Below are positions 524 through 63,760 of a stretch of 64,000 nucleotides of DNA, in pieces. The notes below the pieces were generated by a model. It saw nothing but the letters and a program-made list of their open reading frames with translations, ran no database searches and had not been told where the DNA came from. Numbering within the stretch: position 1 is the first letter of the stretch; each line of letters begins with the position of its first letter. Source of the DNA: Lepidostoma basale (lineage: Eukaryota > Arthropoda > Insecta > Trichoptera > Lepidostomatidae); assembly GCA_022606425.2 (NCBI GenBank), contig JAHDVF020001018.1, positions 744,001 through 808,000 of the forward strand. The letters are read 5' to 3'. The position numbers and the translations under genes were made by a program.

Positions 524-786
524 CTTTGGTACGAAGCCAATACTTTGTGGTTTGACATATTTAATAATTGATTTAAACATTTTTTTAATACATTGTATTA
601 AAAACCACTTTATTATGATTAAGTAGCGCCAACCGGTTTCACTCTGTAGCGATATTTCTCAGGGCTATACACAAAAAGTTTTTTATATCCCCGAGGAAGC
701 TCGCTACAGAGTGAAACCGGTTGCCGCTACTTACTCATAATAATGAGGTTATATACAAAGTTTTAAAAAAACATTAAATTAAATTT
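524..786. mobile_element. Type A palindromic element with 12-bp target duplication
   Basis: Arms around 595-665 and 680-745 are inverted copies, each ending in a hammerhead-like motif beside ACCGGTT. The sequence ccaattataaca occurs at 512-523 and again at 787-798 and is one sequence in the uninterrupted family d host, so it is a 12-bp target duplication. The left side has an unpaired extension of about 55 bp ('ctttgtggtttgacat' at about 547) that recurs beside types B and G. No open frame, so non-autonomous. Confidence 0.75.
690..721 (+). ncRNA. Hammerhead-like motif (type A, right arm)
   Basis: Core CCGAGGA (690-696) plus an extra A (697), stem II GCTC (698-701) with GAGT (708-711, one G.U), GAAA (712-715), self-complementary CCGG and then TT. 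U4 of the consensus is C here, which would weaken catalysis. The left arm copy (628-663, minus) has lost G8 and part of stem II. Related in sequence to the type B copy at 55833. Confidence 0.5.
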
Positions 787-929
787 CCAATTATAACATA
801 TGGTGTTGAAGCAAGGTCAAACACAACAAGACCAAAAAAATTTGAAGACTTCCGAGATGAAGATATTGAAGATGATAGCAGGCATGACGCTAAAAGAACG
901 CCAGAGGAACACCAGAATAAGAGAGATAT

Positions 930-1578
930 AACAACATTTTGAATGTATACAAATTCTTGTAGACAAATACTGGATTTCACCCATTGCGGATAAATTATTT
1001 TTATTTTACAAGGATTAATTGTATCTCAATAGAGACGAAGATGCAAGTTGTTTTCTGGGAACAGAAGGTGGTGGCCGAGGCGTTTACAGGACTTATGACC
1101 TGTCATTGGTTGGGTTGAGCGATCGCTTCACGTTTAACAACATTCCCCATTCCGCCGTTATGACCACCACGTCTGACAAACTTTTTGGAACTTGTATATA
1201 TGGTAGGTTTCTACAAATATTTTCACAATATTATGTTCACTCTACACTAGCGTCATCTATATTAAGATTAGAAAGCATTAAGCAGAAAACCTTTATTAAT
1301 GTACTGTGAAAGTCTATGCAAATCATACAGTACTAGATTTCGCCTGGAGATGTCTCTCCAATTTTTTGCCTGCATGTACCAGTTATATTTATATAACAAC
1401 ATTTTGAATGTATACAAATTCTTGTAGACAAATACTGGATTTCACCCATTGCGGATAAATTATTTTTATTTTACAAGGATTAATTGTATCTCAATAGAGA
1501 CGAAGATGCAAGTTGTTTTCTGGGAACAGAAACAACTTGCATCTTCGTCTCTATTGAGATACAATTAATCCTTGTAAA
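930..1578 (+). mobile_element. X repeat, longest copy, with 13-bp target duplication
   Basis: The core (1016-1367) begins 'aattgtatctcaatagagac' and contains 'tgacctgtcattggttggg' and a 'gcgtcatctat' segment. A block of about 140 bp (930-1068) is repeated directly at 1395-1530, then the start of the core recurs inverted at 1531-1578. ataagagagatat at 917-929 and 1579-1591 is a 13-bp target duplication in family d. No coding potential. Six further copies lie in this window. Confidence 0.75.
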
Positions 1579-1730
1579 ATAAGAGAGATATGTGAGGTTT
1601 AGACGAGGCCTTAGAGGCTGAAGACCTCCTAAAAGAAGAAAAGACAGCTGGGAATCCAGCTTACAGGAGGAGCAACACTTTGGAGAACAGACCACATAGG
1701 TCATAGCAAGGACAAATAAGAAGAAGAATT

Positions 1731-3629
1731 TGATTAGATAAATAATGTATGTGATAAATATGTATGTAAATCTGTATGTATCTTCTATATTCGCCTTCAT
1801 TTTGTGTTATAGAGTCATTTTTGAATAACCATGAAAATATATTGTGTTTTCACAACACTTTATTACACATTTCAGGCACGTTTCGGAAGGCTCTCCTCTT
1901 TCCCCGGTGTGAAATTTTAAAGATTATAATTTGTCTGACACATGTCTATGAAGAGTGATATTTCATCCATAAATTAATTAGATTAATATAATTAGGACAG
2001 CCACCCAGCGAGTATACAATCGTTAGTTAAGTTCTTACTACATTATATATTATTTGCCCTTAAAATAATATTACTTCAATAGTCCTAGTGCATCAGCACG
2101 GTAAGGAAAAATGGATTGTAATAAATATATCCTTCCGGTATACAGCTTTGAGCAGTTTGCTCTTTGTCGTTTATGGACGGAAGTGTGAATAAGATTTCTA
2201 GAAGCAATTTGCAAAATAAGCATTATTGATAGGGTGCATTTTTAATGGTATTCTTATTATTCGAGTTTTCATTGGTAAAAAATGCAACTCTTAAAATTAT
2301 ATCTGTTTTTTTAATTTATTTATTTATTTGTTAAGGGTAACATACAGCGATATCAATAACATATATATAGTAAATAATTTAGAATAATTAAAATAGGGCC
2401 AATTACATGCTACCACAAATATAAAATAATAGTTAACAGTTAACAAATGACAGTGGGAAACGAGATTGAAGTAAAGCTAAAACAAAATGAGATTAGACAT
2501 AATATTTAAGAGTTAAAATATGAATAGAAACATGTAACATCGTAGTCACATCCAGGCCGAAATGTTGCTCTGATCATTTTTTTATCAAATTTCTCTTGTT
2601 CAAATGGTTATGTCTCCAATGTAGTTGTCACAGATTCGATACAATGCCGCGCTCTGAGCGTAGTTAGTGCGATAAACAGGAAAATGGAAAACTTGGCTCA
2701 CGGTGTGTCTCGTGCGAGACATGTTTTAAAAGTATTAAATTTCTAGATGAAATTTTTGGTTTCAGCATTAATTTAAACGCCGTCAGCAACTTGGATTTTA
2801 ATTAACATAATCTTCGTATAATTATATAAAAGTGCTATTATTATTTGGTACGTACTTTTTTATGATTTATACACATTTTCATGTATAAAAGTAAGCTGAA
2901 TGAACGATTTAATATATAATATATTTTCACGGTATTTAATTTATATATCACCAAACAAAATTCTGAATGTACAAAAATCAATTAAATGAAAGCAAATATT
3001 AAATATACAATGTTGTGTTTGTTTTACGTGTAAACGTATGTTATTACCAAAAATAAAAATCCTTGTTACACATTTGATTATGAATTATGTAACATTTCAA
3101 GTACATTTAATTTGAACATACCTTGAAGTACACCGAATATATTTATATATGTTTGGTAATCTTTAGTCATTAAAACTGAAATACTCGTATAATAATTACG
3201 TTTTAATTTTTTTCACTACGTTTATAAAACCCAATTAATTCGATTTTTTTTATAATTATTCAATTGCTAATTCACTTTGGCTCATTAAATAAAATCGTTT
3301 TAAATATTTCACTTAATTCTACGTCTTTAATTTTTTTTCCAAGGCTTTCATGGGCTAAAAGCTCCGAAGCTTCCGATTAAGTCAATCACATCTCATATTT
3401 CCACAATTTGCGGGTAGCCACCGCCCGCCACCTCCGCCCGCTTTTCCGGCGCCTGTCCCTAACTGAAAAGGTCATCTAAATCACCCTTTCTTACAGAAAA
3501 GAGGTCACGCTATTACATTAAGGTGTTTTTCATAAATCAGATCCACGTGAGTTTATTATTCTCGTGTTGAGGGCTACCTTTCATCTAATTATAGCTTCAA
3601 CAGACATGTGTATCAAAACCTATTAGATA
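1731..3629. other. AT-rich stretch without a recognised gene
   Basis: No long open frame on either strand and no match to the repeat families of this window. A slightly GC-richer patch at 3350-3480 ('gccaccgcccgccacctccg') stands out against poly-A/T-rich flanks. It may be ordinary intron. Confidence 0.5.
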
Positions 3630-4140
3630 TTGTTGTTTTATAGACATTCAACAATCAATAATATAATAGAATCAAATAATATAGACCTAAAACTGAGAAT
3701 ACTCCTCATCAAGACCTATGTATGGAGTATCTTGATGTACGGCTGCGAGACATGGTGCCTATCCGAAAGAGATAAGCGGAGACGGGAGGCTTTTGAGATG
3801 TGGTCCTATAGAAGACTATTTGGAATTTCCTGGAGAGACCACATCACGAATGAGGACGTTCTTCAAGGAATCGACGGAGGAAGGCACCTGCTCAGGACCT
3901 TGTCCGAAAGGCGTGCAAGATGGATCGGCCATGTAATACGTCAAGAAGGTCTCTTGCATGCCATAATGGAGGGTATGACCGAGGGGACAAACTCTAGGGG
4001 ACGCCCAGGCTGAGAGTACCTGGAGGACCTGTTGGTGGACGTGCGCTGCTCATCATATGCAGATTTCGAAGAGCCGCACAAGACAGAGAAGAATAGAAGA
4101 AATTGCTGCAAACCAATCCCAGGATTGAAACTTTCTAATT
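3630..4140 (+). pseudogene. Non-LTR retrotransposon C-terminal region, family b
   Basis: The frame 3630-4013 encodes the segment downstream of the reverse transcriptase: LMYGCETW, then EAFEMWSYRR, ISWRDHITNEDVL, RARWIGHVIR and RGRP. These are hallmarks of RTE/CR1-like insect elements. An in-frame TGA at 4011-4013 interrupts it just after RGRPG, and homology continues (EYLEDLL) in the same frame. 5'-truncated, no reverse transcriptase domain, dead. A worse copy lies at 41757. Confidence 0.75.
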
Positions 4141-4269
4141 AACTAACAATCAATACCTATTTATTACTATTTTATTTGAATTTTTCAACTAAGTGTTTTG
4201 TTTCTTCTATATTTGCTATTGCTTTGTCTTGCGAATTCACTTTTGAAAACGTTCTATTTTCTAAATAAA

Positions 4270-4555: not shown

Positions 4556-5029
4556 AATTTTTTCTATTTCGAAACACTTTTTTGCACTTTTCACAAACAG
4601 GTTTCGGGACATAAAAACCCTTCGTAAGTGTAGAAATTTTAACTCTCCCAGTGGTTACAACAGTCGTTTAATTAAATACCTTTTTTGTTTTCTTTGTATT
4701 CTATAAACGAAAGGTATTAAGAAGAGGATAACAGAAGTGACTGGCAAATGGCAGTCGTTTCAAAATATATCTTTAACTGTAATTATAAAAATATGTAAAA
4801 CAGGTTTCAATATGGTCAGAACACGCTAAGCCAAAGTTTGTAGTTTATGTAAAAGATCATTTCTGTTTTGTCTTCGATATATTATATTTTAATGTATTTA
4901 AATAATGCGTGACAGGTTTATTTGATAAGGCAAAAGAAATATGCAAATGAAATGCAAAGTACGCAACAGTTTAATTCGTTCTCCGTATACACGGTTTTTA
5001 CAAAAAAACACGCAGTGTTTTTATACTGA
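4556..5029. other. Intergenic or intronic stretch; one decayed hammerhead-like arm
   Basis: At 4597-4625 the minus strand has GGG/CCC closing a loop, then GAAAC, preceded by 'ttacgaa' (core CUGANGA badly decayed). Otherwise nothing recognisable. Confidence 0.3.
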
Positions 5030-7317: not shown

Positions 7318-7620
7318 GTTAAGGCATTAACACTGTGGAATTCCAAATTGTATTTATCATCAAATTATATTTTTCTAAATTATATTATCATAATACGTAT
7401 TATTATTTAATTAAAAAATAATTGTTAGTTCCGACTTATAACAAATAGCCCAACTTAATTTTTAATTTTTAATTTTTTGTATCGAATTTAAAAGGCGTTT
7501 TTTATTAGTCTTTCTTTGTTTAGTTTTTGTTATATTTTTTACATCTGAAGATGGAGGTATCCTCTGAAACATGTCGTTTGATTATTAAAAAAGTGGTATA
7601 AACAATGTTTAATTAATTCC
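7318..7620 (+). mobile_element. Type K element, half copy
   Basis: The left end 'aaggcattaacactgtggaa' (7321) equals the terminal inverted repeat of the full K palindrome at 23351. The right part holds an outward-pointing hammerhead-like motif and AT-rich flank. One arm only. Confidence 0.6.
7545..7576 (+). ncRNA. Hammerhead-like motif with intact core (type K)
   Basis: Core CTGAAGA (7545-7551), extra T (7552), stem II GGAGG (7553-7557) with CCTCT (7561-7565; four Watson-Crick pairs and one G.U) around a 3-nt loop, GAAA (7566-7569), self-complementary CATG and the GUC triplet ending at 7575. Stem I is short (2 pairs). Every core position of the consensus is satisfied except for the extra base after A9. 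Confidence 0.6.
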
Positions 7621-8445: not shown

Positions 8446-8872
8446 ATATGCCAACGAATTTGAACAGATATGATTACAATATATATATATATTTTTTTCG
8501 TGGGTGAAATCTAGTATTTGTATGCAAGTATAAGTATACATTCACAAAAAAAAATTATCTTATGGGCTTTGCTAGGAATTAATTGTATCTCAATAGAGAC
8601 GAAGATGTAAATTATTTTTATTTTTGGATACGGAATATGGTGGTCGAGGCGTTTACAGGACTTATTATCTTTAATTAGTTGGGTTAAGCGATCGCTTTAT
8701 GTAATACAACATTCCCCATTTCCCTTCTTACGAACTCTTCGTCTGATAGTTATTTTTGAAAGTTGTATATAAAGTCCATTGTTTTGGCCGAAACACTATG
8801 ATATTTTAACATTTTATAACTGTTAATGCAAAAACTTTGTTTTATATCACAATTGTATTTATTTTACTTTAC

Positions 8873-8908
8873 AACAGCTGTTTCATCAACCAATGTTGAC
8901 ATCATCAG
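8873..8908 (-). ncRNA. Hammerhead-like motif (type F, left arm)
   Basis: Mirror of the right-arm motif: core CTGATGA plus extra T, stem II GTCAAC/GTTGAT, GAAA, palindromic stem III CAGCTG. The cleavage triplet is GUU instead of GUC. Confidence 0.55.
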
Positions 8909-8953
8909 GTGTTACAAAAATATATTTAGATATATAATATATTTTTGTAACAC

Positions 8954-8989
8954 CTGATGATGTCAACATTGGTTGATGAAACAGCTGTC
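8954..8989 (+). ncRNA. Hammerhead-like motif with intact core (type F, right arm)
   Basis: Core CTGATGA (8954-8960), extra T (8961), stem II GTCAAC (8962-8967) with GTTGAT (8972-8977) around loop ATTG, GAAA (8978-8981), self-complementary CAGCTG (8982-8987), then T and C (GUC triplet, 8987-8989). Stem I is weak (2 pairs). The palindromic stem III has no loop, so pairing would have to be between two molecules. Confidence 0.6.
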
Positions 8990-9239
8990 GTAAAGTAAAG
9001 TAAATAAAATTGTGATATAAAACAAAGTTTTTGCATTAACAGTTATAATAAGTTGTATATATGTTACCATGTTGAGACACATTTCACATATTTTGGTTCA
9101 ATATACATTAGCGCCATCTATTGAGATTAGATGTAATTAAACAGAAAATCTTTATTAATGTAATGTGAAAGGATATCAACCCAATTATCACAAATTACTA
9201 GACAACGCCTGGAGAAAACTCTCCAATTTTTATATGTCA

Positions 9240-15099: not shown

Positions 15100-15206
15100 T
15101 GAAATCACCAAATAAGGCAGTACATAATGGAGTTCTAGTGCCAAACCTTAAGTATGCCAATGAAGTTGTGTTTTGGCAAAGGAACGATGGAAGTAATATT
15201 GGATTA
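15100..15206 (+). pseudogene. Family a fragment interrupted by the E1 palindrome
   Basis: 'cataatggagttctagtgcc' (15124) and 'aatgaagttgtgttttggca' match the start of the LYGSEAW region in copies at 28800 and 47640. The fragment stops at the target duplication of E1. Confidence 0.6.
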
Positions 15207-15260
15207 ATAATTAAATAAAACGTTGTTTTTTAACTACTTCCACTTTTGTCTTTATTTAGA

Positions 15261-15301
15261 CAGCGACCGGTTTCGCCAGACTCGCTGGCATCGACAGACT
15301 G
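15261..15301 (-). ncRNA. Hammerhead-like motif (E1 left arm)
   Basis: Same sequence as the right-arm motif at 15981, on the minus strand: stem I CAGT/GCTG, core CTGTCGA plus T, stem II GCCAG/CTGGC, GAAA, CCGG, GUC. Confidence 0.5.
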
Positions 15302-15980
15302 GTAACACTATTGTAAACTTAGTCCTTTATATACATACAGATCAGGGGTGGTAAACATGATTCTATACAAAAATAATCTTCATATATTTATGTGAAAAAA
15401 TTCTGAATTTAACTATTGGTATTACAGGTATTCTTGGAGATTCGTGTTTAATACAATGGGTTTTAATTTTTATTATCTCTTACATATTCATATATAATGT
15501 TTGAAAAAATGGTAATTTTGTTTGAATTATTACTGAATTTAAATATTATATGTTATAGTTCTTGGTCCGTAAGGTTGGCCGCGCCTTATTCGGTTTTCCC
15601 AATCCATATAGCTGCTAGGGTCTGGAATCAATCAAAAACACATTTTGGGCAGTAATCGATTCCAAGAATATTTTTTATTTATTTATTTATTTATATGGGG
15701 TATAGCACCTTACGGACCAAGAACTATAACATATAATATTTAAATTCAGTAATAATTTAAACAAAATTACCATTTTTTCAAACATTATATATGAATATGT
15801 AAGAGATAATAAAAATTAAAACCCATTGTATTAAACACGAACCTCCAAGAATACCTGTAATACCAATAGTTAAATTCAGAAAATTTTTACATAAATATAT
15901 GAAGATTATTTTTGTATAGAATCATGTTTACCACCCCTGATCTGTATGTATATAAAGGACTAAGTTTACAATAGTGTTAC

Positions 15981-16021
15981 CAGTCTGTCGATGCCAGCGA
16001 GTCTGGCGAAACCGGTCGCTG
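15981..16021 (+). ncRNA. Hammerhead-like motif with three stems (E1 right arm)
   Basis: Stem I CAGT (15981-15984) with GCTG (16018-16021, one G.U); core CTGTCGA (15985-15991) plus extra T; stem II GCCAG (15993-15997) with CTGGC (16003-16007); GAAA (16008-16011); CCGG; GUC triplet ending 16017. The one core deviation is A6 to U, present in all E copies, which should impair activity in known hammerheads. Confidence 0.5.
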
Positions 16022-16238
16022 TCTAAATAAAGACAAAAGTGGAAGTAGTTCAAAAACAACGTTTTATTTAATTATTATTTAAAATTAACTTCCATCAAGA
16101 GATTTCAGTAAAATCATTTGAATATTGGATTATTTATTGAACATAACTGGTATCATATACTACGAGTATATCAACAAGATATTTTTTACTTGCAAGATAT
16201 AAAACTACACAAATCAATTGACGAAAACATACATTTTC

Positions 16239-18633: not shown

Positions 18634-18885
18634 AAAATCAAATGATTTTACTGAAATCTCTTGATGGAAGTTCATTTTAAAGAATAATTCATTTTAAAGT
18701 CGATTTTTTTTAACTACTTCCACTTTTGTCTTTATTTCAACAGTGACCGGTTTCGCCAGTCTCGCTGGCATTGACAGACCAGTCTGTGGATGCTAGCGAG
18801 CGTGGCGAAACCGGTCGCTGTCGAAATAAAGACAAAAGTGGAAGTAGTTAAACAACATCGTTTTATTTCATTGTCATTTAATATT
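18634..18885. mobile_element. Type E palindrome, compact copy (E2)
   Basis: The extension 'gaaatctcttgatggaagtt' (18652) and both arms are present, but the centre is deleted: the two motifs abut at 18779-18784. Arms of about 75 bp. Confidence 0.7.
18780..18820 (+). ncRNA. Hammerhead-like motif (E2 right arm)
   Basis: CAGT/GCTG stem I; core CTGTGGA plus T (18784-18791); stem II starts GCTA and closes with TGGC, where T.G replaces the C-G seen in E1 so pairing is kept; GAAA 18807-18810; CCGG; GUC. The partner motif on the minus strand (18741-18779) reads CTGTCAAT, so G8 is lost. Confidence 0.45.
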
Positions 18886-19549: not shown

Positions 19550-19865
19550 AGCATTCACTTTGTGGTAAGACATTTAAATTTTTTTATTGTTTATATTTAA
19601 AATAAAATATAAATAAAGACACTGCACTTTGTTTTTCACCACTATGCGGTTATTTTAATTGCTGACTAGTTTCGCTTGTACCCAAGCTTCCTCAAGGCTT
19701 CGTAATAACTGAGTTAATGAGTTGACAGTTATTACAAAGCCCCGAGGAAGCTTGATAACATCCAAATTAGTCGGTAATTAAAATAACCGCATAGTGGTGA
19801 AAAACAAAGTGCAGAGTTTTTTATTTCTATTTTATTTTAAATATAAATAATAAAACAATAAAATT
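19550..19865. mobile_element. Type G palindromic element
   Basis: Arms around 19590-19690 and 19725-19860 are inverted ('actatgcggttattttaatt' against 'ataaccgcatagtggtg'). The left extension 'gaagcattcactttgtggta' (19550) is the one shared with type A. Non-coding. Confidence 0.65.
19664..19695 (-). ncRNA. Hammerhead-like motif (type G, left arm)
   Basis: Minus strand: TTGAGGA plus A, stem II GCTTG/CAAGC around GGTA, GAAA, self-complementary CTAG, then GUC-like 'tc'. The right-arm core at 19742-19749 is CCGAGGAA, but its stem II is damaged. The same stem II and CTAG recur at 40716 and 52234 with different loops. Confidence 0.45.
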
Positions 19866-23005: not shown

Positions 23006-23569
23006 TACAAAAATAACAAAGATGAAAACTTTCGAAAGACATTCATTATTACGGCATTATCTGGCAAAATCTGCATACTTAAGAACTGACTCTCGAATGG
23101 AAAGGGTTTTCTTTAATTTACAATTTAAATTTGTACTTTTTGGAGTATAATAAATGTACGTATATTATTCGTAAATTGAAACATTACAATAAGGAGTGGG
23201 TTTGAGATGGAAATATTTAAACTAAGATGTCCTTAAATTATTCTGAATATTTTAATACATAATTACAATCTCTTCTTATATAATTTAAATCATTTGTTTT
23301 ATTGTGAAATATACAAAAGAATATGTGAATTGAAAACATTATGATTTAAAGTTAAGGCGTTAACACTGTGGAATTCCATTGTGATTTGGAATATAATTAA
23401 TAACACTGTTCAATACACTTTGATTTATTAAATATTTTTACAAATCACAAGCCGTAATTGTTATTTGTTCCATTGATAAGTTTAGTTAATTTTAATTAAT
23501 TTTATGTATACATTTTCAGTAACTTGAAATAAGTACCTTCGACAACTACAAAATTGAATGAGTTTATTT

Positions 23570-23613
23570 TTCTCGACATGTTTCGAAGGCTTACACCTTC
23601 ATCATCAGGAGAA
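23570..23613 (-). ncRNA. Best hammerhead-like motif in the window (K left arm)
   Basis: On the minus strand: stem I TTCTC (23613-23609) with GAGAA (23574-23570), five pairs; core CTGATGA (23608-23602), extra T (23601); stem II GAAGG (23600-23596) with CCTTC (23589-23585) around a 6-nt loop; GAAA (23584-23581); self-complementary CATG (23580-23577); GUC with the scissile C at 23575. All three helices and all core bases of a hammerhead are present. The departures are one additional base between A9 and stem II and a stem III too short to form within one molecule. Confidence 0.65.
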
Positions 23614-23845
23614 CGATATAAACTAATCAAAATTATTATATATTACTTGTGTTAGTTAACTTGGCTAGGGATGTAACAAAAAAACATATCAATGGGTTAA
23701 ATTTTGAAAGGATTTTTAGATGGAAATTTAACCCATTGATATGTCTATCGTTATCTCCGTAGTACTAGCCAAGTTAACTAACACATGTTATGTATAATTT
23801 TAGGTTATTGCACTCAGTTTATAATAATTTCGGTTAGTTTATATC

Positions 23846-23890
23846 GTTTTCCCGATGATAAAAGTGTAAGCTTTCGAAACACGTCGAGAA
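23846..23890 (+). ncRNA. Hammerhead-like motif (K right arm)
   Basis: Core CCGATGA plus T (23852-23859), stem II AAAG/CTTT flanked by an A.C mismatch, GAAA (23876-23879), then CACG-T-C and GAGAA, which can pair with the upstream TTTTC. Slightly decayed sister of the left-arm motif. Confidence 0.5.
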
Positions 23891-23979
23891 AAATAAACTC
23901 AAAAGTGAAAAAAAAAACAGTGTTTTAATTCATAAAAAATTCGTCATTATGGAATTCCAGTGTTAACGCCTTAGGTTAA

Positions 23980-25215: not shown

Positions 25216-25500
25216 CTCAGAAACCCTTCATAAGGGTTTTGTATGTACAATATAAATATTATATTTTAACAAATATTTATATTGTACAATATATACAAAT
25301 AATTGATGAAGGGCTTCAGTGTTTGAAATATGTTTGTTTTTAAACTTTAATTTTTTAAATAAAGTTCTTGTTGTTTACAAATATTTGTTAAAATATTTAT
25401 GTTGTATATACAAAACACTGATGAAGGATTTCTGTGTCCGAAACATGTTTTTTTGTTTAAATTTTTTAAAGTTCGTGTTGTTTACAAAGTTTAAAAAAAA
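25204..25500 (+). repeat. Cluster of three hammerhead-like arms
   Basis: One minus arm near 25210-25240 and plus arms near 25303-25338 and 25418-25449, each followed by 'tttgtttaaa..ttttttaaa' and a shared 'caaatatttgttaaaatatt' spacer. Looks like a palindrome with one arm duplicated in tandem. Confidence 0.5.
25418..25449 (+). ncRNA. Hammerhead-like motif with intact core
   Basis: Core CTGATGA (25418-25424) plus extra A, stem II GGAT/GTCC (25426-25429, 25436-25439), GAAA (25440-25443), CATG, then UUU (GUU triplet). Confidence 0.5.
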
Positions 25501-33644: not shown

Positions 33645-36082
33645 CATAGGTTTCCCATATTTTCTGGGCCACTGCCCCCTTTACAAGAAAAATAAAAGTT
33701 ATTCGAAATATGGGAAAATGATTACAATACATACAATAACAAAATAAACCAATATTTAAGTTTAATTTGCAAAAACACTCCGGGTGCGAGTGTCTAATGC
33801 ATGGTTTGATGAAGAATGTCGTAGAAACAAGAGACTAATGCGTAGGTCTGAACGTATGTACCGAAACACAGGCCTAAGCTCTTCAAGAGAAGCCTGGGTG
33901 AGATCGCAGAATTCTTTTAGAGACCTGATCAAGAAGAAAAGATCGGAGTACTGGAAATGTAAAATTGAATCGGAAAAGGAAAATCCCCGACATCTATGGA
34001 ATTCCGTTAAATCAGTACTCGGAAATAATCAACAAGAAAAGGCCTCTACCAAGTTATCTCCTCAGGACTTCGCCCAATTCTTTGAAGATAAAATCGCTGT
34101 GATTCGTGCAACGACTTCATCTACAACACCACCAACTTTCACGACATATGAGGGAAAACTTCTAACTAAATTTAATATCACAACACCTCAAGAAGTGATT
34201 AAACTTATCTTAAACGCACCTAATAAGCAGTGTTCGCTTGATCCGATTCCGACATGGCTTCTCAAGAGATGCTGTCACCATGTTGCTCCATTTTTAGTCA
34301 AAATTTTTAACAAATCTCTACTAACAGGACAAGTCCCCCTTTTGCTCAAGAAAGCTATTGTTTCTCCCATATTAAAAAAACCTCAACTAGATTCCGAAAA
34401 TCTTAGTAACTTCCGGCCCGTCTCAAATCTACCTTTCATCTCTAAAGTTCTTGAAAAAATTGTAGCCTCCCAAATTTCAACTCACCTTTCGACAAACAAT
34501 ATTTTGTCTAAATTACAATCCGCCTACAGACGTTTCCATTCAACGGAGACGGGATTGCTTAGAGTCATGTCAGATTTAGTACTGGCAAACGAATCGGGCA
34601 AATTGGCACTGCTTTCCCTTCTGGACATGAGCGCTGCGTTTGACACAATTGATCACTCATATCTTATCCAACGATTAGCGATCACGTATGGTTTTAGAGG
34701 TAATGCCATAGACTGGCTAAATTCATATCTGTCGGATCGTTCACAAGCTGTGCAGCTAGCAGGTAAAAAATCCTCATTTACTAATATCCAATCTGGTGTG
34801 CCACAAGGCTCTGTTTTAGGACCCCTTTTATTTATCATGTTTACAAATGACGTTGCCAAAATAATAGAATCCTTTGGCCTCCTCTCACATTGCTATGCTG
34901 ATGATCAGCAACTTTATTTTTTCTGCAACCCTGATGACACCAAACATCTTACGTCAATAACTGTCAACTGCATTGATGCCATATCCAGATGGATGGCATC
35001 AAACAAACTTAAACTAAATCCATCCAAAACGGAATTTCTCTGGACTTCTTCCGCAAAGCGTCAACATCTTATCGATCATTCCTCAATTTCAACAGCTGAC
35101 AATGATATCGTTCCCAAAAACTCCACAAAGCTTCTTGGTGTTTATCTTGACGCAAATCTCTCTCTAAAATCCCAAATTAATAACACGGTCAGCGCTAGTT
35201 TCTTCCACCTAAGACGATTAAAATCCGTCAAAAGGAGTATTCCCCATGACACTTTCAAAACTCTTGTAAATTCCTTCGTTGTGTCACGACTTGATTATTG
35301 TAATGGAATTTATGCAAACATTCCAAAACAACAAATAAACAAACTTCAATCTGCGTTCAATGCAGCAGCAAGGCTCATTAAAGGCATTCCAAAAAGTCCC
35401 ATATAACACAACATCTCAAAGAACTTCACTGGCTTAAAAGTCCAGAAAGAATCCAGTATAAACTCTGCTGGACAGTCTTCAAAGCGCTACATGGAATGGC
35501 ACCAAGTTATATATCTGAACTCTGTAAAGCGGACAGCCTAAATTCACGGAAATCCACACTTCGCTCGGCGAACTCCTCAGCAATAGGAAGATTAGTTGAG
35601 CCGAAGCGTTGCCCCAGTACGAATTTCGGGGATCGAGCGTTCGCGGTAGCCGGTCCATCAGCTTGGAACAATCTCCCTTCACACCTTAGATGCATAAATG
35701 ATCCGACAGATTTCAGAACTAAATTGAAAACCCATCTTTTTCATATTTCATACCCAAATTAAACATTTATACTTTGTTCTACTATACTTTTAAACCAATC
35801 GTTTTTTAAGCGCTCACATTTAGATTTTTAGATTTAAAACACGTCTTAATGCGCCCTTGAGGTGATTACATCACAAAAACGGCGCTTTAAAAGTTAGCAT
35901 ATTATTATTATTATTATTATTATTGCTTTATTAGTACCTACGTGATTGGCGTGTTTTTTTTTTGTCTTTTTAGACTATATTTTTTTATCTACCGCTCTCT
36001 ATTTTTTCTGGGTCTTCTACTGCCCCCCTGAAAGTCTCAAATGCCCACAAGGGGGTGTTATCGCCCACTTTGAGAACCTAGG
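33645..36082. mobile_element. hAT-type non-autonomous element containing a CR1-like insertion
   Basis: The left end 'cataggtttcccatattttc' (33645) and the right end 'gcccactttgagaaccta' (36063) match, in the same order, the complement of the uninterrupted 328-bp copy at 54608-54935. 8-bp target duplication as described for the host. Interior left part to about 33783, right part from about 35925 ('gcgtgttttttttttgtctt'). Confidence 0.8.
33784..35924 (+). pseudogene. CR1/L2-group non-LTR retrotransposon, 5'-truncated, reverse transcriptase domain intact
   Basis: The 540-codon frame (33784-35406) starts in the linker between endonuclease and reverse transcriptase (NAWFDEECRRNKRLMRR, KKKRSEYWK), then the reverse transcriptase: SNFRPVSNLPFISKVLEKIV, SAYRRFHSTETGLL, LLDMSAAFDTIDH (about residues 279-291), GVPQGSVLGPLLF (about 338-350), HCYADDQQLYFF with Y371-A-D-D374, and a thumb-like KLKLNPSKTEFLW. 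One frameshift at about 35390-35400 separates the C-terminal segment (LKELHWLKSPERIQYK, then 35496-35762 ending FKTKLKTHLFHISYPN-like). The 3' UTR contains 'gcgcccttgaggtgattaca' and ends in about eight ATT units at 35900-35924. No endonuclease, so immobile. It codes for RNA-templated DNA synthesis by family. Clade within CR1/L2/Daphne is not resolved by eye. Confidence 0.85.
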
Positions 36083-40564: not shown

Positions 40565-40740
40565 TTAATAGAAATGACATGTTTTGCCTGTCTAAGTTAT
40601 TATCAAATGTTTAATAAAACTTTTAGAAAACGGACGTTCTCATTCATATTAATTATTAATTATGAAACAATATTTTTTTAAACTATTTCTTAAGAAGTTT
40701 TTTATTAGGCTGATAAGCTTGTATACAAGCGAAACTAGTT
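40565..40740. repeat. Type J arm followed by a type G arm
   Basis: The J arm has 'gacatgttttgcctgtctaa' (40577). The G arm at 40710-40740 has stem II GCTTG/CAAGC with loop TATA, GAAACTAGTT, but a core shortened to CTGATAA. The loop differs from the copies at 19664 and 52234 while the stem is unchanged. Confidence 0.5.
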
Positions 40741-40779
40741 GGTTTTAAATATGATTATAAATATGAAGTGTGTTAAATG

Positions 40780-46559: not shown

Positions 46560-47082
46560 TTGTAACATGTTGAATGCATACAAATACTTGTAGACGAATA
46601 CTGAATTTTACCCATTGCGGGCTATCATTTTTAAGGATTAATTGACAATTAACCCTTAAAAATGATAACCCACTATGAGTAAAATCCAGTATGCGTCTAC
46701 AAGTGTTTGTATACATTCAAAATGTTGTAAAAAACTGGTCTTACTTAAAAATCATAAAAATTGGAGAGACATCTAAAGGCGTTATCTAGCAATGTATGTT
46801 AATGGCGGTAGCCTTTCACATTGCGTTAATAAAGATCTTCTGTTTAATGCTTGAATCCAATCTTAATAGACAGCGCTAGTGTAGATTGAACTAAAAAATG
46901 TGAAGTGTTTCCCAACATTGTAGCATATCTTCCAAAAATTTGCCAAGAAGGGCGGAATGGGAATGTTGTATTACATAAAGCGTGCGTTTAACGCAACCAA
47001 TGACAGGTCATAAGTCCCGTAAACGCCTCGACTACCATATTCTGTTTCCAAATAATTTACTAATATTGAGATACAATTAATT
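46560..47082 (-). repeat. X repeat copy 5 with terminal palindrome
   Basis: Core 46760-47082 on the minus strand. At 46570-46745 'acttgtagacgaatactgaa' and its complement form a palindrome of about 2 x 75 bp, the inverted version of the terminal block in the 930-1578 copy. Confidence 0.7.
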
Positions 47083-52224: not shown

Positions 52225-52262
52225 ATGAATAAGGCTTGGGTCCAAGCGAAACTAGTTGGCAT
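52225..52262 (+). repeat. Truncated type G arm
   Basis: Stem II GCTTG/CAAGC with loop GGTC (52234-52247), GAAACTAGTTGGC. The core is replaced by the end of a (TAAC)n tract. Confidence 0.45.
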
Positions 52263-57775: not shown

Positions 57776-57819
57776 TGCTCTTAATTTTGACCAGTCTTTA
57801 GATTGTTTTAGAAACAATA

Positions 57820-58208: not shown

Positions 58209-59509
58209 CGAGGTCTGTTCAAAAAGTATCGCGAATTTTGAATTTCCGCTGGCTACGTATATTTGATTTTTGATTTTTTTGTAGCGTTATGTTGGTACTC
58301 ATGTCCCTTACTTATGCTGACAAGGTCGGCCATTTTGAATGTTTAGTTAATTTTTGACAGCTGTTTTGCTTGGATGTGTTTTGGCTCGTCTTCGATTTTT
58401 GCCTATTCCAAAAAATGGATCAAAGAATCTGTATCAAATTTTGTGTGAAAAACAAAATAAAGTGCGCGGACGCATTTCGAATGTTGACTGTGGCATATGG
58501 TGAAGCTACCTTGGACCAAAGCAACGTTTATCGGTGGTACAAAATGTTCTCAGAGGGCCGAGAAGATATGAACGACGAAGAGCGTGCCGGACGCCCGAGC
58601 ACGTCAACAACAGACGAAAACATTGATAAAGTGAAGAAAATAGTATTAGCAAATAGTTGCTGAGGACCTTAACATATCGATTGGCTCGTGCCATTCGATT
58701 TTAACCAATGATTTGGGCATGAGTCGGGTCGCCGCGAAATTCGTGCCAAAATTGCTCAATTTCGACCAAAAACAGCATCGCGTTAACATTGCTCAGGAGA
58801 TGTTGGACTCGGTCCGTGACGACCCAAATGTGCTCCAGAGGGTCATAACTGGTGATGAATCATGGGTTTATGGTTATGACGTGGAAACCAAAGCTCAATC
58901 ATCCCAATGGAAGCTGCCGCATGAGCCAAGACCAAAAAAAGCGCGCCAAGTTCGGTCGAACGTGAAGGTTTTGCTCACAGTTTTCTTCGATTGCAGGGGC
59001 GTGGTGCATCATGAGTTCTTGCCACAGGGTAGTACGGTCAATAAGGAATATTACCTGCAAGTTATGCGCAATTTGCGCGAAGCAATCCGCCAGAAACGCC
59101 CGGATTTGTGGAAGAACAAAAACTGGCTTTTGCACCATGATAACGCCCCTGCTCACACATCGTTGCTTGTGCGCGAATATTTGGCCAAAAACAACACAGT
59201 AATGGTGCCGCAGCCACCGTATTCCCCAGACCTGGCCCCCTGTGACTTTTTCCTGTTTCCAAAACTGAAGAGGCCCATGAAAGGACGACGCTACGCCACG
59301 ATTGAGGAGATAAAGACGGCATCGAAGGAGGAGCTGAACAAGATCACAAAAAATGATTTTTTAAGTGCTTCGAGGATTGGAAAAAACGTTGGCATAAATG
59401 TATTATATCCGAGGGGAATTACTTTGAAGGGGACAAAATAGATATTCATGAATAAATAAATTCTTTTTGAAAAAATATAAAATTCGCGATACTTTTTGAA
59501 CAGACCTCG
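58209..59509 (+). mobile_element. Mariner transposon, 1301 bp, TA target duplication
   Basis: Terminal inverted repeats start 'cgaggtctgttcaaaaagta' (58209) and end with the complement 'tactttttgaacagacctcg' (59490-59509); they extend about 30 bp with few mismatches. TA at 58207-58208 and 59510-59511. Length and structure are those of a complete mariner. The single ORF is broken (see transposase), so it is non-autonomous but recently inserted. Confidence 0.9.
58415..59455 (+). pseudogene. Mariner transposase with two disruptions
   Basis: Starts MDQRICIKFCVKNKIKCADA (ATG 58415). N-terminal helix-turn-helix with LDQSNVYRWYKMFSEGRED and AGRPSTSTTDENI up to VLAN (about 58654). A deletion of roughly 20 bp with frameshift removes a few residues, then VAEDLNISIGSCHSI and the catalytic half (frame to 59340) follow: ITGDESWVYGYD (first D), HHDNAPAHTS (second D), YSPDLAPCDFFLFP (third D), with 34 residues between the last two, i.e. 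DD34D. A one-base shift in a T run at about 59355 puts the last 30 codons (KCFEDWKKRWHKC..., stop 59453-59455) out of frame. Usual length is about 345 residues. It would cut and paste DNA at TA sites if intact. Subfamily is not assigned. Confidence 0.9.
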
Positions 59510-59594
59510 TACCTCTCGGGCTTCCTTTACATTCATACATCGTACCATGCACGCACGTCGATTTTTCCGACTATCACTGAACAATTATCGATTA

Positions 59595-59680: not shown

Positions 59681-59793
59681 GTGAATCGAGAGTAGTATGT
59701 CAGGAAAGAAAATTGTAGCAGTCCATTCTTTCTGCCTACCCTTTCGGGGAGACGGCGTGATGGTTAGTTGATTAGTTAGTTAGTTATAATTTA
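59681..59793 (+). pseudogene. Family a 3' fragment
   Basis: 'agtccattctttctgcctac' (VHSFCLPF-like end), 'acggcgtgatggttagttga' and (GTTA)n tail. Confidence 0.65.
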
Positions 59794-60579: not shown

Positions 60580-60692
60580 TTATTATATTTTATGTAACAT
60601 AAATGACATGTTTCGCCTTTCTAATAATGACTTGACTGTGAAACATGCCATTCCCATAATATAACATATTATAAAACTTCTAGTAAATAGAC
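60580..60692. repeat. Type J palindrome, decayed
   Basis: 'aatgacatgtttcgcctttc' (60602) and 'ctgtgaaacatgccattccc' (60636) are inverted, with the suffix 'ttctagtaaatagacg'. Confidence 0.5.
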
Positions 60693-61095
60693 GTCTTCAT
60701 TTTTCATCTTCTTCTCTTTTTGGTCTGTTCCTGTAGTCAGGCTGGCCTCTCTTGGTAGGCTGACTCCAAGACTCCCTGACTCGTTCATCTCTTTGGCGGT
60801 CTTCCGGGGGGATGGTAGCCAACAGAAATCTGATGCGCAACAGCGTGTGGGATTCTGGAGGGATCCATCCTCTGCACGTGCGCATTCCAGTATCTTTTGC
60901 GTTGCATCTTACGATATATTACACCTTGCAGATTTCGCAGATAGGCGTGTTTCTCACCCTATCTCGTAAAGTCTTTCCTGCGATCATCCTCAGCGTCCAC
61001 ATCTCTGCCACCCGGACATTAGCCTTCATTCTTTTGGTATCCGCTCTGGTCTCAACGCTATATGTCAGTATAAGTCTTATGCAGGTGTTTTATAT
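60693..61095 (-). pseudogene. Non-LTR retrotransposon C-terminal fragment, family e
   Basis: Minus strand: SVETRADTKRMKANVRVAEMWTLRMIAGKTLRDRVRNTPICEICKV, then CNAKDTGMRTCRGWIPPESHTLLRIRFLLATIPPEDRQRDERVRESWSQPTKRGQPDYRNRPKREEDEK and (GAAGAT)n. Decay is moderate (frameshift near 60890). Confidence 0.7.
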
Positions 61096-61129
61096 TATAT
61101 TATTCATTTTGTATATACAAAATATACAT

Positions 61130-61560
61130 AAACGTTATTTTTTTCTTCCAATGGCGTTGCAGTCCAAATTGAGCCTTGGTCTCCGTCAACTTTCGCCTCC
61201 TGCAGTCTCTGTCCTCAGCAGTCGTCCTTCGACCTCAGCCATAGTCTTCCCATCCTTCTCCTTCCCCCCGGGTGTCCACTCATAATGCGTTTGGGGACCC
61301 ATGAGTTTGGCATCTTCTGTACATATCCAGCCCATCTCAATATTTGTAACTTTATGTGCGTGGAGATGTTGGGCGCCTGGTACATGGAATAAAGCTCATC
61401 GTTGCGTCTCTCCTTTTTTCACGGGTTTACAAATCCGTCGCAGCGTCTTTCTTTCAAAGATGTCTAGCAGTTACGCTATTTTTACCGTCAAAGTCAGAGC
61501 CTCGCAGCCATACGCCAATACTGTCCGTATTACGGTCTTGTATAGCGTGATTTTTGTCTT
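61130..61560 (-). pseudogene. LINE C-terminal fragment, family g
   Basis: Minus strand: VIRTVLAYGCEALTLTVKIA, LDIFERKTLRRICKPVKKGE, then NIEMGWICTEDAKLMGPQTHYEWTPGGKEKDGKTMAEVEGRLLRTETAGGES. The A-rich end is at 61138. Related to the truncated insertion at 54219. Confidence 0.65.
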
Positions 61561-61679
61561 TCTAATATACGTTTTCATTCGTATTAATTATATAATTATA
61601 TATTTTATCTTCTTATATGTCTCAAATCGTTTTTCCTTTATTAGAATCTGTGATATTACGCCGTTACAGTAAGAGCATC

Positions 61680-62129
61680 GTCCAACGTTCAGGTGAAGCT
61701 TAATACAACTCAAAATACAACTTAAAAGATTTTCTCCTATCGCCTTTTCATTTTATCAAATTCATTTGATGTATTTCCAAGCTGTAACGGTAACTAGTCA
61801 CGCAGTAGCACGGCTGGCGTGTCAAATGCTTTTTTTGTATCCCCCGAAACATTTGAGATTGGACTCAATATTACTCTTTAAATTGATCGAACACTTTTCA
61901 ACCCGATTTTCCGAAATTTGCTTCTGTTAATACGCGTTATAATTTGATGACAAATATTTTTTGTGCCAAAACTATGATTTTGTTACAACAACTTTTTTAA
62001 TTCGCGTTACAAATAATGACATGCATCTTGTGTCATTATGTGTTTAAACATATTTATTTAATTTAAATTCACGTAAAATTAAAGTATTAGGTATAACGGT
62101 AGGTCTATAATTAATTAATATAGAAGGTT
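61680..62129. other. Stretch without a recognised feature
   Basis: AT-rich, no family match. Confidence 0.35.
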
Positions 62130-62440
62130 TAATTGTATCTCAATAGACACGAAGATGCAAATTGGAAACTGAATATGGTTGATTAAGGTGTTTACAGGAC
62201 TTATGACCTGTCTTTGGTTGGGTTAAGCGCACGCTTTATGTAATTACAACATTCCCCATTCCACCTTTCTTATGACCATGTCTGACCAATTTTTGGAAGT
62301 TGTATATATGTTAAAGTCCAACACCATAATTCACATGTCAGTTTCAATGCGCCATCTATGAAGATTTATGTTTATTAAGTATTAAGTAGCATTAAGCAGT
62401 AAGTAGTATTCGTATTAAGCAGTAAGTAGTATTTGTATAC
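62130..62440 (+). repeat. X repeat copy 7, 3' end rearranged
   Basis: Good match to copy 2 up to 'gcgccatctatgaag' (62350), then a run of short repeats of 'attaagcagtaagtagtatt' (62387-62440) replaces the normal end. Confidence 0.65.
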
Positions 62441-62674
62441 GAGTATATGTGTAGCACCGTGATATGAAATATGAAACCTTTAAACTCCCATATCTCCAAA
62501 ATATTTATTTGCACTTAATTCGGTTTTACACTCACGGTGCGATGTATACATTTAAAAAAATATAGAAGATTTTTATTTATTCATTTATCAAATCAAATGT
62601 TATTTGTTGTAAATGAATGTATTTCACTACTAAATAGTTATATATTTTTATATTATTTTAAAGCGTATATTTTA

Positions 62675-62810
62675 TGACGTGCGTGCATGGTACGATGTAT
62701 GAATGTAGAGGAAACCCGAGAGGTATGCCAGGACAGAGCATTTTGGCGATCCATCCTCTCTACCTACCTCTCCGGGTAAATAGCGTGATGGTTAGTTAGT
62801 TAGTTAGTTA
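62675..62810 (+). pseudogene. Family a 3' fragment
   Basis: RACMVRCMNVEETREVCQDRAFWRSILSTYLSG-IA and tail of four GTTA units; closest to the 17360 copy. Confidence 0.7.
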
Positions 62811-63445
62811 TATAAGCTGGGTTTGCTCTAAACTATATGATACGAAACATTCAGCGAAATTGTAATAAAATTAATTTCTATAAAATATACATTTTTTATT
62901 CATATAAATTATACATAATAAATTATTGTTGTACATGTATGTATTTCACAACACAATAGTTTTCTAAAACTTCTATTTAAACTGGGCTCGCTCTAAACTA
63001 ATATATACGATACAAAACATTCAGCGAAATTAGAATAAAATTTCGTTTGTGAGAAACTTCAAGCATTTGTCTGTAGTTTCCAGCTTGGAATGGTGCACTC
63101 TGCGTGGCGCTGCGCACAGCGGGACATTGTGGCGATTGTTATCATAAATATCCCGCTGCGGGGGAGGGGCACCTCGGTGCAATCTTCTCCGAACTGGGGA
63201 TGGAACAGTGTCAAACGCCGTCATGATTTATCCCCTCGCTGACCTTTTCTATAGCCCGGGGCTTCCGCCTTTTCCCACGCCCGGCGCTACCACCCACCGG
63301 CCGTCGATTTTCCAGAAGCATTCAATTAAACTTTTTTGTCATTTTGAAAATATTTTACTCAATTACTACACATCTCAGAATTCACGTAAAAATATTTCAA
63401 CGGATATATTATTAAACATAATTTTAAATATGTTTTGTGTTATTT
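62811..63445. other. Stretch with an unexplained GC-rich island
   Basis: 63075-63310 is strongly GC-rich ('atcccgctgcgggggagggg', 'gcccggcgctaccacccacc') between AT-rich flanks. 'aaacattcagcgaaatt' occurs twice (62844, 63017), part of a direct duplication of about 60 bp ('gggtttgctctaaacta'). No coding assignment. Confidence 0.4.
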
Positions 63446-63570
63446 GGGGTAACACCGTGTGATTTCTCCTTCTCGACCGACGTTTCGGAGATCGTTGCAG
63501 TCTCCATCTTTAGGGTAATGTGCCACCACCAAGGAGAAATCACACGAAACATATTGCTGCCAACCGTGAA
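63446..63570. mobile_element. Type L palindromic element
   Basis: 'gtgtgatttctccttctcga' (63458) and 'aaggagaaatcacacgaaac' (63532) are inverted. One hammerhead-like motif (63479-63513, minus). Confidence 0.6.
63479..63513 (-). ncRNA. Hammerhead-like motif (type L)
   Basis: Minus strand: stem I ACC/GGT; core CTAAAGA plus T (63513-63506; G5 changed to A); stem II GGAGA/TCTCC (five perfect pairs) around a 9-nt loop; GAAA; minimal self-complementary ACGT; GUC. Confidence 0.5.
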
Positions 63571-63599
63571 AATCTATGCAATTATAATTTAAAATAGTT

Positions 63600-63760
63600 G
63601 TTTACTTTGCTTTACACCATTTTATTATGTTTCATCGAGTTTACCGGTTTCGCTCTAGCCGGAACTTCATCAGGGTTACAAAAACGAACGGAACTGTTTG
63701 TTTTGTAACCCAGACGAAGCTCCGGCAGAAACGAATCTGATTGGTTCTAGAAAACAAAAA
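63600..63760. mobile_element. Type D palindromic element
   Basis: Left arm about 63605-63685 and right arm about 63695-63740 are inverted around 'tttgtaacc' sequences. The right core is CAGACGAA with a truncated stem II. Confidence 0.6.
63642..63673 (-). ncRNA. Hammerhead-like motif with intact core (type D)
   Basis: Minus strand: CTGATGA plus extra A (63673-63666), stem II GTTC/GAGC with one T.G, GAAA (63651-63648), CCGG, then T-A (GUA triplet). Compared with type C (GCTCC/GGAGC) one pair has changed to a wobble, so pairing is maintained. Confidence 0.55.

What the first reader, a model, noticed from the sequence alone, without database searches (positions are those of the whole stretch)
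628..63718. A superfamily of hammerhead-ribozyme-like motifs in at least ten otherwise different palindromic repeat families
Seen: the same ordered pattern (C-Y-G-A-N-G-A, one extra A/T, hairpin of 4-6 bp closed by G-C, GAAA-C, a self-complementary tetramer or hexamer, N-U-H) recurs in elements A, B, C, D, E, F, G, H, J, K and L whose flanks do not resemble each other. Intact cores are at 7545, 8954 (+), 8873 (-), 23570 (-), 25418 and 63642 (-). Known: this is the hammerhead core; an extra base between A9 and stem II is, as I recall, natural in a viroid hammerhead (chrysanthemum chlorotic mottle viroid). Inferred: these are mobile units whose RNA self-cleaves or did so recently.
Basis: partly seen in the sequence, partly recalled or inferred. 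Interest (0 to 1): 0.92.

Follow-up and report, generated by a model that had tools for sequence, protein, structure and literature searches.

The report
Penelope retroelement hammerheads with extra base
The scattered hairpin motifs are hammerhead-ribozyme folds carried at the ends of Penelope-like jumping elements, with thousands of matches in this genome; such folds are known from these elements, but here nearly all keep one extra base in the catalytic core and many elements sit as head-to-head mirror pairs.

Summary
The motif is real and not chance. A hammerhead descriptor with free spacer finds 6 window sites (shuffle mean 0.12), all with one extra base after A9 and a self-complementary stem III. 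The assembly has 5,386 matches to a +1 pattern and 0 to its reversed control. The overlapping pattern that also admits no insertion gives 108; of 100 listed, 25 fold best without it. Stems I and II covary over 48 copies from outside the window; a model from them finds 9 window sites at E<1e-3. Rfam hammerhead models found none of those tested.

The carriers are Penelope-like retroelements (PLEs): two families have the motif downstream of GIY-YIG coding sequence; others have a similar tail and, in three families, an ORF start. Palindromes are head-to-head copies, as expected if both cut target strands prime reverse transcription. This matches the published class of small PLE hammerheads; I could not read its two defining papers, so whether the +1 core is already described stays open. 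PLE-A, the family with the longest open frame, has A6U in all 44 folds counted, suggesting catalysis is dispensable there. Self-cleavage is untested.

The parts
558..774 (.). Head-to-head PLE pair of family F5 (ACCGGT stem III): decayed hammerheads at 624-669(-) and from 691(+); ORF-start-like tail MSNHKVLASYQ from 558 on the minus strand, 82 nt from the motif
   Evidence: (12.1 bits, E 0.53: weak); inverted repeat I14
4589..4635 (-). Diverged hammerhead, core altered to CTTACGA
   Evidence: 23.2 bits, E 2.3e-4
7538..7582 (+). Family F4 hammerhead (CTGAAGA T GGAGG...CCTCT GAAA CATGTC), the family found downstream of PLE-B GIY-YIG fragments; about 130 nt upstream resemble those copies
   Evidence: (E 4.4e-5)
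8808..9054 (.). Head-to-head palindrome of family F6: hammerheads 8868-8915(-) and 8947-8994(+), stem III ACAGCTGT, 6-bp stem II with G-U closing pair, weak stem I
   Evidence: I2; 14.0 and 13.4 bits
10163..10208 (-). Family F5 hammerhead, core decayed to CCGACGA
   Evidence: E 1.3e-5
15186..16096 (.). Head-to-head pair of PLE-A 3' ends (390-nt arms, 97% complementary), with A6U hammerhead folds at 15258-15304(-) and 15978-16024(+)
   Evidence: I1; E 0.012 each
18701..18860 (.). Solo PLE-A head-to-head pair, arms meeting next to the hammerhead core
   Evidence: (I17); not found by the model
19664..19690 (-). Part of a family F1 hammerhead (stem II, GAAA, stem III)
   Evidence: E 6.2e-5
23568..23892 (.). 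Head-to-head pair of family F3: intact hammerhead 23568-23613(-) with 5-bp stem I; partner with U4C 23847-23892(+)
   Evidence: E 1.2e-8 and 0.03
25296..25456 (+). Two same-strand (tandem) F2-like hammerheads: decayed 25296-25341 and intact 25413-25456
   Evidence: E 0.07 and 1.6e-10
40703..40747 (+). Family F1 hammerhead (ACTAGT), one core base missing
   Evidence: E 2.3e-7
52234..52257 (+). Part of a family F1 hammerhead
   Evidence: E 3.2e-4
63635..63749 (.). Head-to-head pair of family F5: 63635-63680(-) core intact, 63704-63749(+) decayed
   Evidence: E 1.8e-6 and 1.1

Best explanation
These are the small hammerhead ribozyme folds of Penelope-like retroelements, left in the window as 5'-truncated copies of seven families. 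Shown: a type I hammerhead layout with a vestigial, mostly self-complementary stem III and one conserved extra base between A9 and stem II; a tail downstream (GTGGTnTAAAnACAAAGTTTT-like) and, in three families, the first codons of an ORF about 70-100 nt downstream; association with GIY-YIG or RT coding sequence in two families; head-to-head pairing of copies. Inferred: the PLE protein recognises this 3'-terminal fold plus tail, cuts both target strands and starts reverse transcription internally at ACAAAG-type box(es) on each cut end. This yields head-to-head copies with 3' ends outside and, when the 5' copy of the box is used, short solo copies whose 5' edge lies 10-20 nt before the core. Cleavage by the hammerhead, probably as dimers or with protein help, would separate units of tandem transcripts, but may not be needed for insertion.
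For: Non-chance. RNA structure: on 48 rows 78.9% of 621 cells paired against 59.0% shuffled and covariation 0.473 against 0.168, each reached by 0 of 500 shuffles; slid by 1-3 columns 33-44%. Stem I strands of the same copy pair 3.52 of 5 positions against 2.24 for exchanged partners. Folding one representative of each of F1-F4 gives stems I and II in 4 of 4. +1 base. PLE link: PLE-A has RVT_1 and GIY-YIG in one frame, with the fold about 385 nt past its stop; F4 motif 139-379 nt past the GIY-YIG open frame, same strand, in 5 of 7 longer loci. Tail, ORF start, 5' edge. Neighbouring pairs in 47 loci: head-to-head 19, direct 6, tail-to-tail 1. Published parallels, passages read: PAc protein cuts and extends both strands, starts internally in an AC-rich stem loop at two adjacent sites, and its hammerhead cleaves only with protein (PMC11167929); head-to-head inverted pLTRs and ORF start inside the pLTR in rotifers (PMC3846280); minimal type I hammerheads in PLE pseudo-LTRs (PMC7761336).
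Against: Two of the five covariation measures show little or no excess: pairs with a change on both sides 10 against 9.8 shuffled (389 of 500 reach it) and further pair types 35 against 30.3 (7 of 500). Minimum-energy folds of F1-F3 add a competing 3-bp helix between core and stem III, and none of four predicted dimers is a double hammerhead. No autonomous ORF was found for F1, F2, F3, F5 or F6 in the one GIY-YIG search (150 of 542 candidates scored). The 7 PLE-B loci were partly chosen because one search had shown the motif in 4 of them; 2 of 7 have none, and the motif is decayed in L049 and L051. PLE-A has A6U in all 44 folds counted and no ACAAAG box in 0 of 8 copies found. Several F1 copies lack the tail; 7 of 21 ORF starts have no motif within 170 nt. 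F6 has a weak stem I. No Rfam hammerhead hit. No cleavage, RNA or insertion data.
Confidence: 0.85

Rival explanations
1. Retrozyme-like small non-autonomous elements: short repeats whose RNA is cut out by the hammerhead, circularised and copied back, with PLEs only lending the enzyme.
For: Short units, thousands of matches, several families; published animal retrozymes of about 170-400 nt with type I hammerheads coexist with PLEs (PMC7229834). Same-strand pairs occur: 25296/25413 in the window and 6 pairs.
Against: Head-to-head pairs outnumber direct ones 19 to 6, which a circle copied into tandem DNA would not give. F1, F2, F5 and F6 copies start 10-20 nt before the core and continue past the cleavage site into a tail, so unit borders are not cleavage sites. 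GIY-YIG coding sequence is attached in two families.
Confidence: 0.08
2. DNA transposons or MITEs with terminal inverted repeats in which the hairpin is a transposase-binding DNA structure and the hammerhead resemblance is incidental.
For: Palindromic, MITE-like appearance; both strands equally represented.
Against: Hammerhead core bases in register with covarying stems I and II; unequal arm lengths in head-to-head PLE-A and PLE-B copies; RT and GIY-YIG coding sequence in elements of two families.
Confidence: 0.03
3. The fold is kept only as a structure (protein-binding or RT-positioning site near the RNA 3' end) and is not a working ribozyme in this genome.
For: PLE-A, with the longest open frame and copies 97-99.8% identical, carries A6U in all 44 folds counted while keeping stems I-III. 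In the green anole PLE, hammerhead-dead RNA still inserts (PMC11167929, passage). Stem III is 2-3 bp; competing helices in three of four folds.
Against: Families F1-F6 have copies with all core bases, an NUH site in 49 of 52 rows and a self-complementary stem III in 41 of 52 (the core bases, C and GT were fixed by the search pattern).
Confidence: 0.3

Closest known systems
Small hammerhead ribozymes of Penelope-like retrotransposons (Cervera & de la Pena 2014; Lunse, Weinberg & Breaker 2017; neither paper held, known here from titles, citing passages and recall)
   Same: PLE terminal repeats, type I layout, vestigial palindromic stem III, thousands of copies in animal genomes, proposed dimer action
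   Different: One extra base between A9 and stem II in nearly all matches (whether the published consensus has it I could not check); one family with A6U in all folds counted
PAc, Poseidon PLE of Anolis carolinensis (PMC11167929, passages)
   Same: Hammerhead at the pLTR-ORF junction, ORF start within tens of bases, internal RT start in an AC-rich site, both strands cut and extended
   Different: Its ORF starts inside the hammerhead (at stem II), whereas here ORF-start peptides lie 72-99 nt past GAAAC; short head-to-head solo copies here
Bdelloid Penelope elements with inverted pLTRs (PMC3846280, passages)
   Same: Head-to-head inverted pLTRs, first ORF codons inside pLTR or tail, palindromes at the junction
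   Different: Authors favour self-priming on an antisense template; both-strand priming would explain the pairs here without it
Plus-strand hammerhead of chrysanthemum chlorotic mottle viroid (passages of PMC3705267 and PMC11014351; original 2001 paper not held)
   Same: An extra nucleotide in the catalytic core; its place after A9 is recalled, not read
   Different: A viroid RNA; no element-level relation claimed
Animal retrozymes (PMC7229834: abstract, first part of Results, passages)
   Same: Type I hammerheads in short repeats co-occurring with PLEs
   Different: Tandem units spread through circular RNAs, with helix III and, in many, loop-loop contacts

Membership tests
Hammerhead ribozyme (type I) | Core C3-U4-G5-A6-N7-G8-A9 and G12-A13-A14 in order | tested here: met
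   6 window sites and 48 aligned genomic copies, the latter chosen by a pattern that fixes these bases; not met by PLE-A (A6U) or by decayed window copies
Hammerhead ribozyme (type I) | Stem II directly after A9 | tested here: not met
   One extra base in 6 of 6 window sites and in nearly all genome matches: 5,386 against 108 from an overlapping pattern, of which 25 of 100 listed prefer spacer 0. [quoted passage not shown]
Hammerhead ribozyme (type I) | Stems I and II paired and covarying | tested here: met
   stem I 67.5% and stem II 84.1% of cells paired; whole-structure pairing and covariation beyond all 500 shuffles, but the number of pairs with changes on both sides (10) equals the shuffled mean (9.8)
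Hammerhead ribozyme (type I) | N-U-H cleavage site | tested here: met
   H is T 43, C 4, A 2, G 3 of 52 rows (U16.1 was fixed by the search pattern, and two of the G rows are F6, whose stem III is longer)
Hammerhead ribozyme (type I) | Self-cleavage at H17 | not testable with these tools
   needs transcription and assay
Small PLE hammerheads | Vestigial, self-complementary stem III | tested here: met
   ACATGT 22, ACTAGT 16, ACCGGT 3, together 41 of 52 rows; window 6 of 6
Small PLE hammerheads | Cleavage as dimers | tested here: inconclusive
   RNAcofold minimum-energy dimers of four representatives were not double hammerheads; energy models do not score the core, and no assay was possible
Small PLE hammerheads | Location in PLE terminal repeats | tested here: met
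   PLE-A and PLE-B directly; F1, F2, F5 by tail and ORF start only; F3 and F6 by tail only
Penelope-like element | RT followed by GIY-YIG endonuclease in one frame | tested here: met
   PLE-A open frame of 758 codons: RVT_1 at 302-478, GIY-YIG at 651-734; first Met at residue 159, so the N-terminus is uncertain
Penelope-like element | Telomerase-like RT clade | not tested
   no tree was built; 1,341 homologues at E<=1e-10 among 7,995 scored candidates, 120 listed, the named ones from insects
Retrozyme | Units bounded by hammerhead cleavage sites, in tandem | tested here: not met
   head-to-head 19 against direct 6; 5' edge 10-20 nt before the core in F1, F2, F5, F6

The most novel reading that the evidence does not exclude
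A hammerhead class with an obligatory extra core base (+1 after A9) is the dominant form in PLEs of this lineage. The short head-to-head copies are minimal self-renewing retroelements: transcription starts 10-20 nt before the ribozyme, the PLE enzyme starts at an ACAAAG box 27-47 nt past it on both cut target ends, and the product is again the same palindrome. In one recently spread lineage (PLE-A) the ribozyme has lost A6 but the fold is retained for priming, which separates the structural from the catalytic role.
Probability: 0.25. Interest if true: 0.72.

Novelty: new member of a known kind. Interest (0 to 1): 0.5.

Why it matters
The role of the hammerhead in Penelope-like elements is called unknown in the review passages read (PMC7761336). 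This genome offers several diverged families with a common layout (fold, tail, RT-start-like boxes, ORF start) and a natural A6U family. So it can be tested whether the fold is needed for cutting RNA, for placing the reverse transcriptase, or both. The Rfam hammerhead models missed every copy given to them here (the window and 7 loci), perhaps because of the short stem III and the extra base, so annotation of such genomes may miss the class or call the palindromes MITEs or miRNA-like hairpins.

Tried and rejected
Rfam scans of the window, of 181 bases around the best site and of 7 genomic loci: no hammerhead; best hits were miRNA models on the long palindromes, all below gathering score. MITE/DNA transposon reading: rejected on covariation and RT/GIY-YIG linkage. 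Retrozyme reading: disfavoured by orientation and borders. Dimer folding: none of four predicted dimers was a double hammerhead. The GIY-YIG search also returned two frames of 623 and 621 codons on contigs that look bacterial (uvrC-like by my reading; not searched), used as a negative control for the covariance model (best 12.6 bits, E 0.079). L041 and L042 share their flanks, so they are one insertion in duplicate. Solved structures: no match to the PLE-A frame. A protein search of the genome for further PLE ORFs did not complete. L005 was left out of alignment A1 and of the orientation count because it overlaps L006 (in one search both are counted, 52 rows), and two identical rows (L067, L077) dropped out of A1: 52, 50, 48 rows. 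In row L089 of A1 the alignment is shifted. One search ended with an error after its output for L009-L038 was complete.
Full report
What was checked. Among the 120 listed relatives of its PLE-A protein, the named species seen are insects: Phthorimaea, Euphydryas, Diabrotica, Schistocerca. The host itself was not identified.

Is it chance? The pattern CTGATGANGN{6,30}GAAAC gives 5 matches in the window; 100 shuffles give a mean of 0.06 and at most 1. A descriptor that leaves the spacer after A9 free (0-3) gives 6 hits, all with spacer 1 and a self-complementary stem III; 60 shuffles give a mean of 0.12 and none self-complementary. On the 47 loci fetched for GIY-YIG (some overlapping) the same descriptor gives 27 hits: 23 with spacer 1, 2 with spacer 2, 2 with spacer 0. 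Genome-wide, CTGATGANGN{6,20}CGAAACNNGT has 2692 forward and 2694 reverse matches and none for the reversed control. CTGATGAGN{6,20}CGAAACNNGT has 55 and 53; the two patterns overlap where the extra base is G. Of the 100 listed matches of the second, 38 fold best with spacer 1, 25 with spacer 0, 2 equally with 0 or 1, 5 with 2 or 3, and 30 have no 3-bp stem at spacers 0-3. So the extra base is a near-constant part of the motif: A in 46 and T in 6 of 52 rows (two rows are duplicates, and that pattern fixed G as the base after it).

Is it an RNA structure? 48 distinct copies were aligned. They come from 47 loci on contigs C1-C8, the first listed of the 5,386 matches, so neither random nor from the window. 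With the hammerhead structure, 78.9% of 621 cells are paired (shuffled 59.0%), 154 cells have a change on both sides (74.4), and the covariation score is 0.473 (0.168); 0 of 500 shuffles reach any of the three. The other two measures show less: 10 pairs with a change on both sides against 9.8 (389 of 500 reach it) and 35 further pair types against 30.3 (7 of 500). Sliding the partners by 1-3 columns drops pairing to 33-44%. Stem I pairs are 67.5% kept, stem II 84.1%; the two stem III pairs and the stem II closing pair were fixed by the search pattern and carry no weight. Copies within a family are related, so independent events are fewer than rows. In a separate test the two stem I strands of a copy pair 3.52 of 5 positions, against a mean of 2.24 and a maximum of 2.71 in 500 exchanges of partners. 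Family-typical strands are TGCC/GGCA (F1), AATATCA/TGATATT (F2), TTCTC/GAGAA (F3), TACAC/GTGTA (F4). RNAalifold alone predicts only 4 pairs of stem II. Minimum-energy folds of one representative each of F1-F4 contain stems I and II in 4 of 4, but in F1-F3 a 3-bp helix between core and stem III competes, and none of the four predicted dimers is a double hammerhead.

Model search. A covariance model from those 48 copies finds 9 window sites at E<1e-3, of 41 listed up to E 10. Weaker matches coincide with palindrome partners and PLE-A copies. On 14 kb of bacterial-looking sequence the best match is 12.6 bits, E 0.079, so window matches of about 14 bits or less (F6, 624-669) rest on their family likeness. 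Rfam finds no hammerhead in the window, in 181 bases around 23600 or in 7 genomic loci.

What carries it. A GIY-YIG search (62 matches, 150 of 542 candidates scored, 30 loci fetched) led to two PLE families. PLE-A has an open frame of 758 codons with RVT_1 and GIY-YIG; its first Met is residue 159, so the N-terminus is uncertain. About 385 nt past the stop lies the fold CTGTCGA-T-GCCAG(CGAGC)CTGGC-GAAA-CCGGTC with a 4-bp stem I, and the 5' flank of the same copy is an inverted duplicate of that 3' UTR. Of the truncated copies compared, L043, L044, L045 and L047 are two head-to-head copies of unequal length with both 3' ends outside; L046 and L048 are single. The window palindromes 15186-16096 and 18701-18860 are such PLE-A ends. 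Position 6 is U in all 44 PLE-A folds counted: 27 in L009-L038, 12 in L041-L048, 3 in the window, 2 elsewhere, with double counting where loci overlap. Two further diverged copies seen were outside that count: window 18792 (CTGTGGA, also U6) and L025 (core rearranged). PLE-B: 4 of 30 loci had the F4 motif downstream of the GIY-YIG match on the same strand. Seven longer loci, four of them those same places, show it 139-379 nt past the open frame in 5 (decayed in L049 and L051); L053 and L054 have none. Window site 7538 is F4.

Tail and borders. Copies of each of F1-F6 have a tail like GTGGTnTAAAnACAAAGTTTT downstream of stem III, though several F1 copies and the window F3 copy lack it. ACAAAG occurs within 130 nt in 12 of 18 F1, 8 of 15 F2, 3 of 7 F5, 3 of 5 F6 and 0 of 8 PLE-A copies, against means of 0.23-0.65 copies after mononucleotide shuffling. 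In F1 it stands at +35 to +37 in 11 of the 12; boxes at +68 to +83 occur in 3 F1, 3 F2 and 1 F5 copies. F1, F2 and F5 copies run into ORF-start peptides: MSNHKVSASYE, MANIEE and MSHHKV. Of 21 such starts listed, 14 have GAAACnnGT upstream, at 72-99 nt except one at 150 (window 24026); 7 have none within 170 nt. Upstream of the core, F1 identity is 0.87-0.89 in the last 10 nt, 0.60 in the next 5, then 0.38-0.54; F5 falls likewise, F6 (5 copies) is noisy, F2 declines over about 20 nt, and PLE-A stays at 0.80-0.95. Among neighbouring motifs less than 450 nt apart in 47 loci, 19 pairs are head-to-head, 6 direct and 1 tail-to-tail; 25 loci have a single match.

How it probably works. In the PLE studied in vitro the protein cuts and extends both strands and starts reverse transcription internally, in an AC-rich stem loop at two adjacent sites that match the genomic tail; its hammerhead cleaves only with protein present and is not needed for insertion (PMC11167929, passages). 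The anatomy here fits: internal starts in the tail on both cut ends give head-to-head copies with 3' ends outside. A start at the box near the RNA's 5' end would give short solo copies with a fixed 5' edge; that step is inference. The bdelloid work also found head-to-head the most frequent arrangement and proposed self-priming on an antisense template (PMC3846280, passages). A double hammerhead in cis needs two same-strand motifs; head-to-head copies offer one per strand, so their transcripts would have to pair in trans.

Known or new. Minimal type I hammerheads in PLE terminal repeats, lacking helix III and thought to act as dimers, are known (passages of PMC7761336, PMC6155905, PMC6466107, PMC8490949; PMC7229834: abstract, first part of Results, passages). 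The two defining papers and the Terminon paper were not held; the 2001 viroid paper was seen only in reference lists. [quoted passage not shown] PMC11014351 (passage) says the extra viroid nucleotide weakens cleavage. The searches listed no paper that I could see to describe a +1 core in PLEs, which does not show that none exists. I therefore file this as a new member of a known kind, with the +1 core and the A6U family as the points worth following.

Noticed in passing
L039 (G000:C102:19000-26000) and L040 (G000:C729:132000-139000): Two contigs of the assembly (1.64 Mb and 0.25 Mb) carry GIY-YIG frames of 623 and 621 codons that look like bacterial uvrC, with neighbouring bacterial-type ORFs: perhaps endosymbiont or contaminant contigs.
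   Followed up: partly
window 33784-35406 and 58713-59441: A 540-codon reverse transcriptase frame (RVT_1) and a transposase fragment (Transposase_1, DDE_3; mariner-like by my reading).
   Followed up: no
window 1001-1053, 1466-1518, 1530-1582, also about 8040 and 8580: Another repeat (TTGTATCTCAATAGAGACGAAGATG...) in direct and inverted copies, unrelated to the hammerhead motif as far as seen.
   Followed up: no
window about 23356-23378 and 23950-23970: Outer inverted repeat (GGCGTTAACACTG...GGAATTCCA) around the F3 pair, outside the hammerhead arms; nearby, 24026 reads MPHHHLSASYE, like the ORF starts of F1 and F5.
   Followed up: partly
G000, e.g. C49:1286535, C281:19587, C864:112882: A further hammerhead-like family (GATGGCAGCGAGCTGCCGAAACCGGT) caught in the no-insert search, with a longer stretch between CTGATGA and the hairpin.
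   Followed up: no
window 8885-8979, 18708-18853, 46588-46702: Rfam miRNA precursor models match long palindromes with E down to 7e-10 but below gathering scores: a likely source of false microRNA annotation.
   Followed up: no
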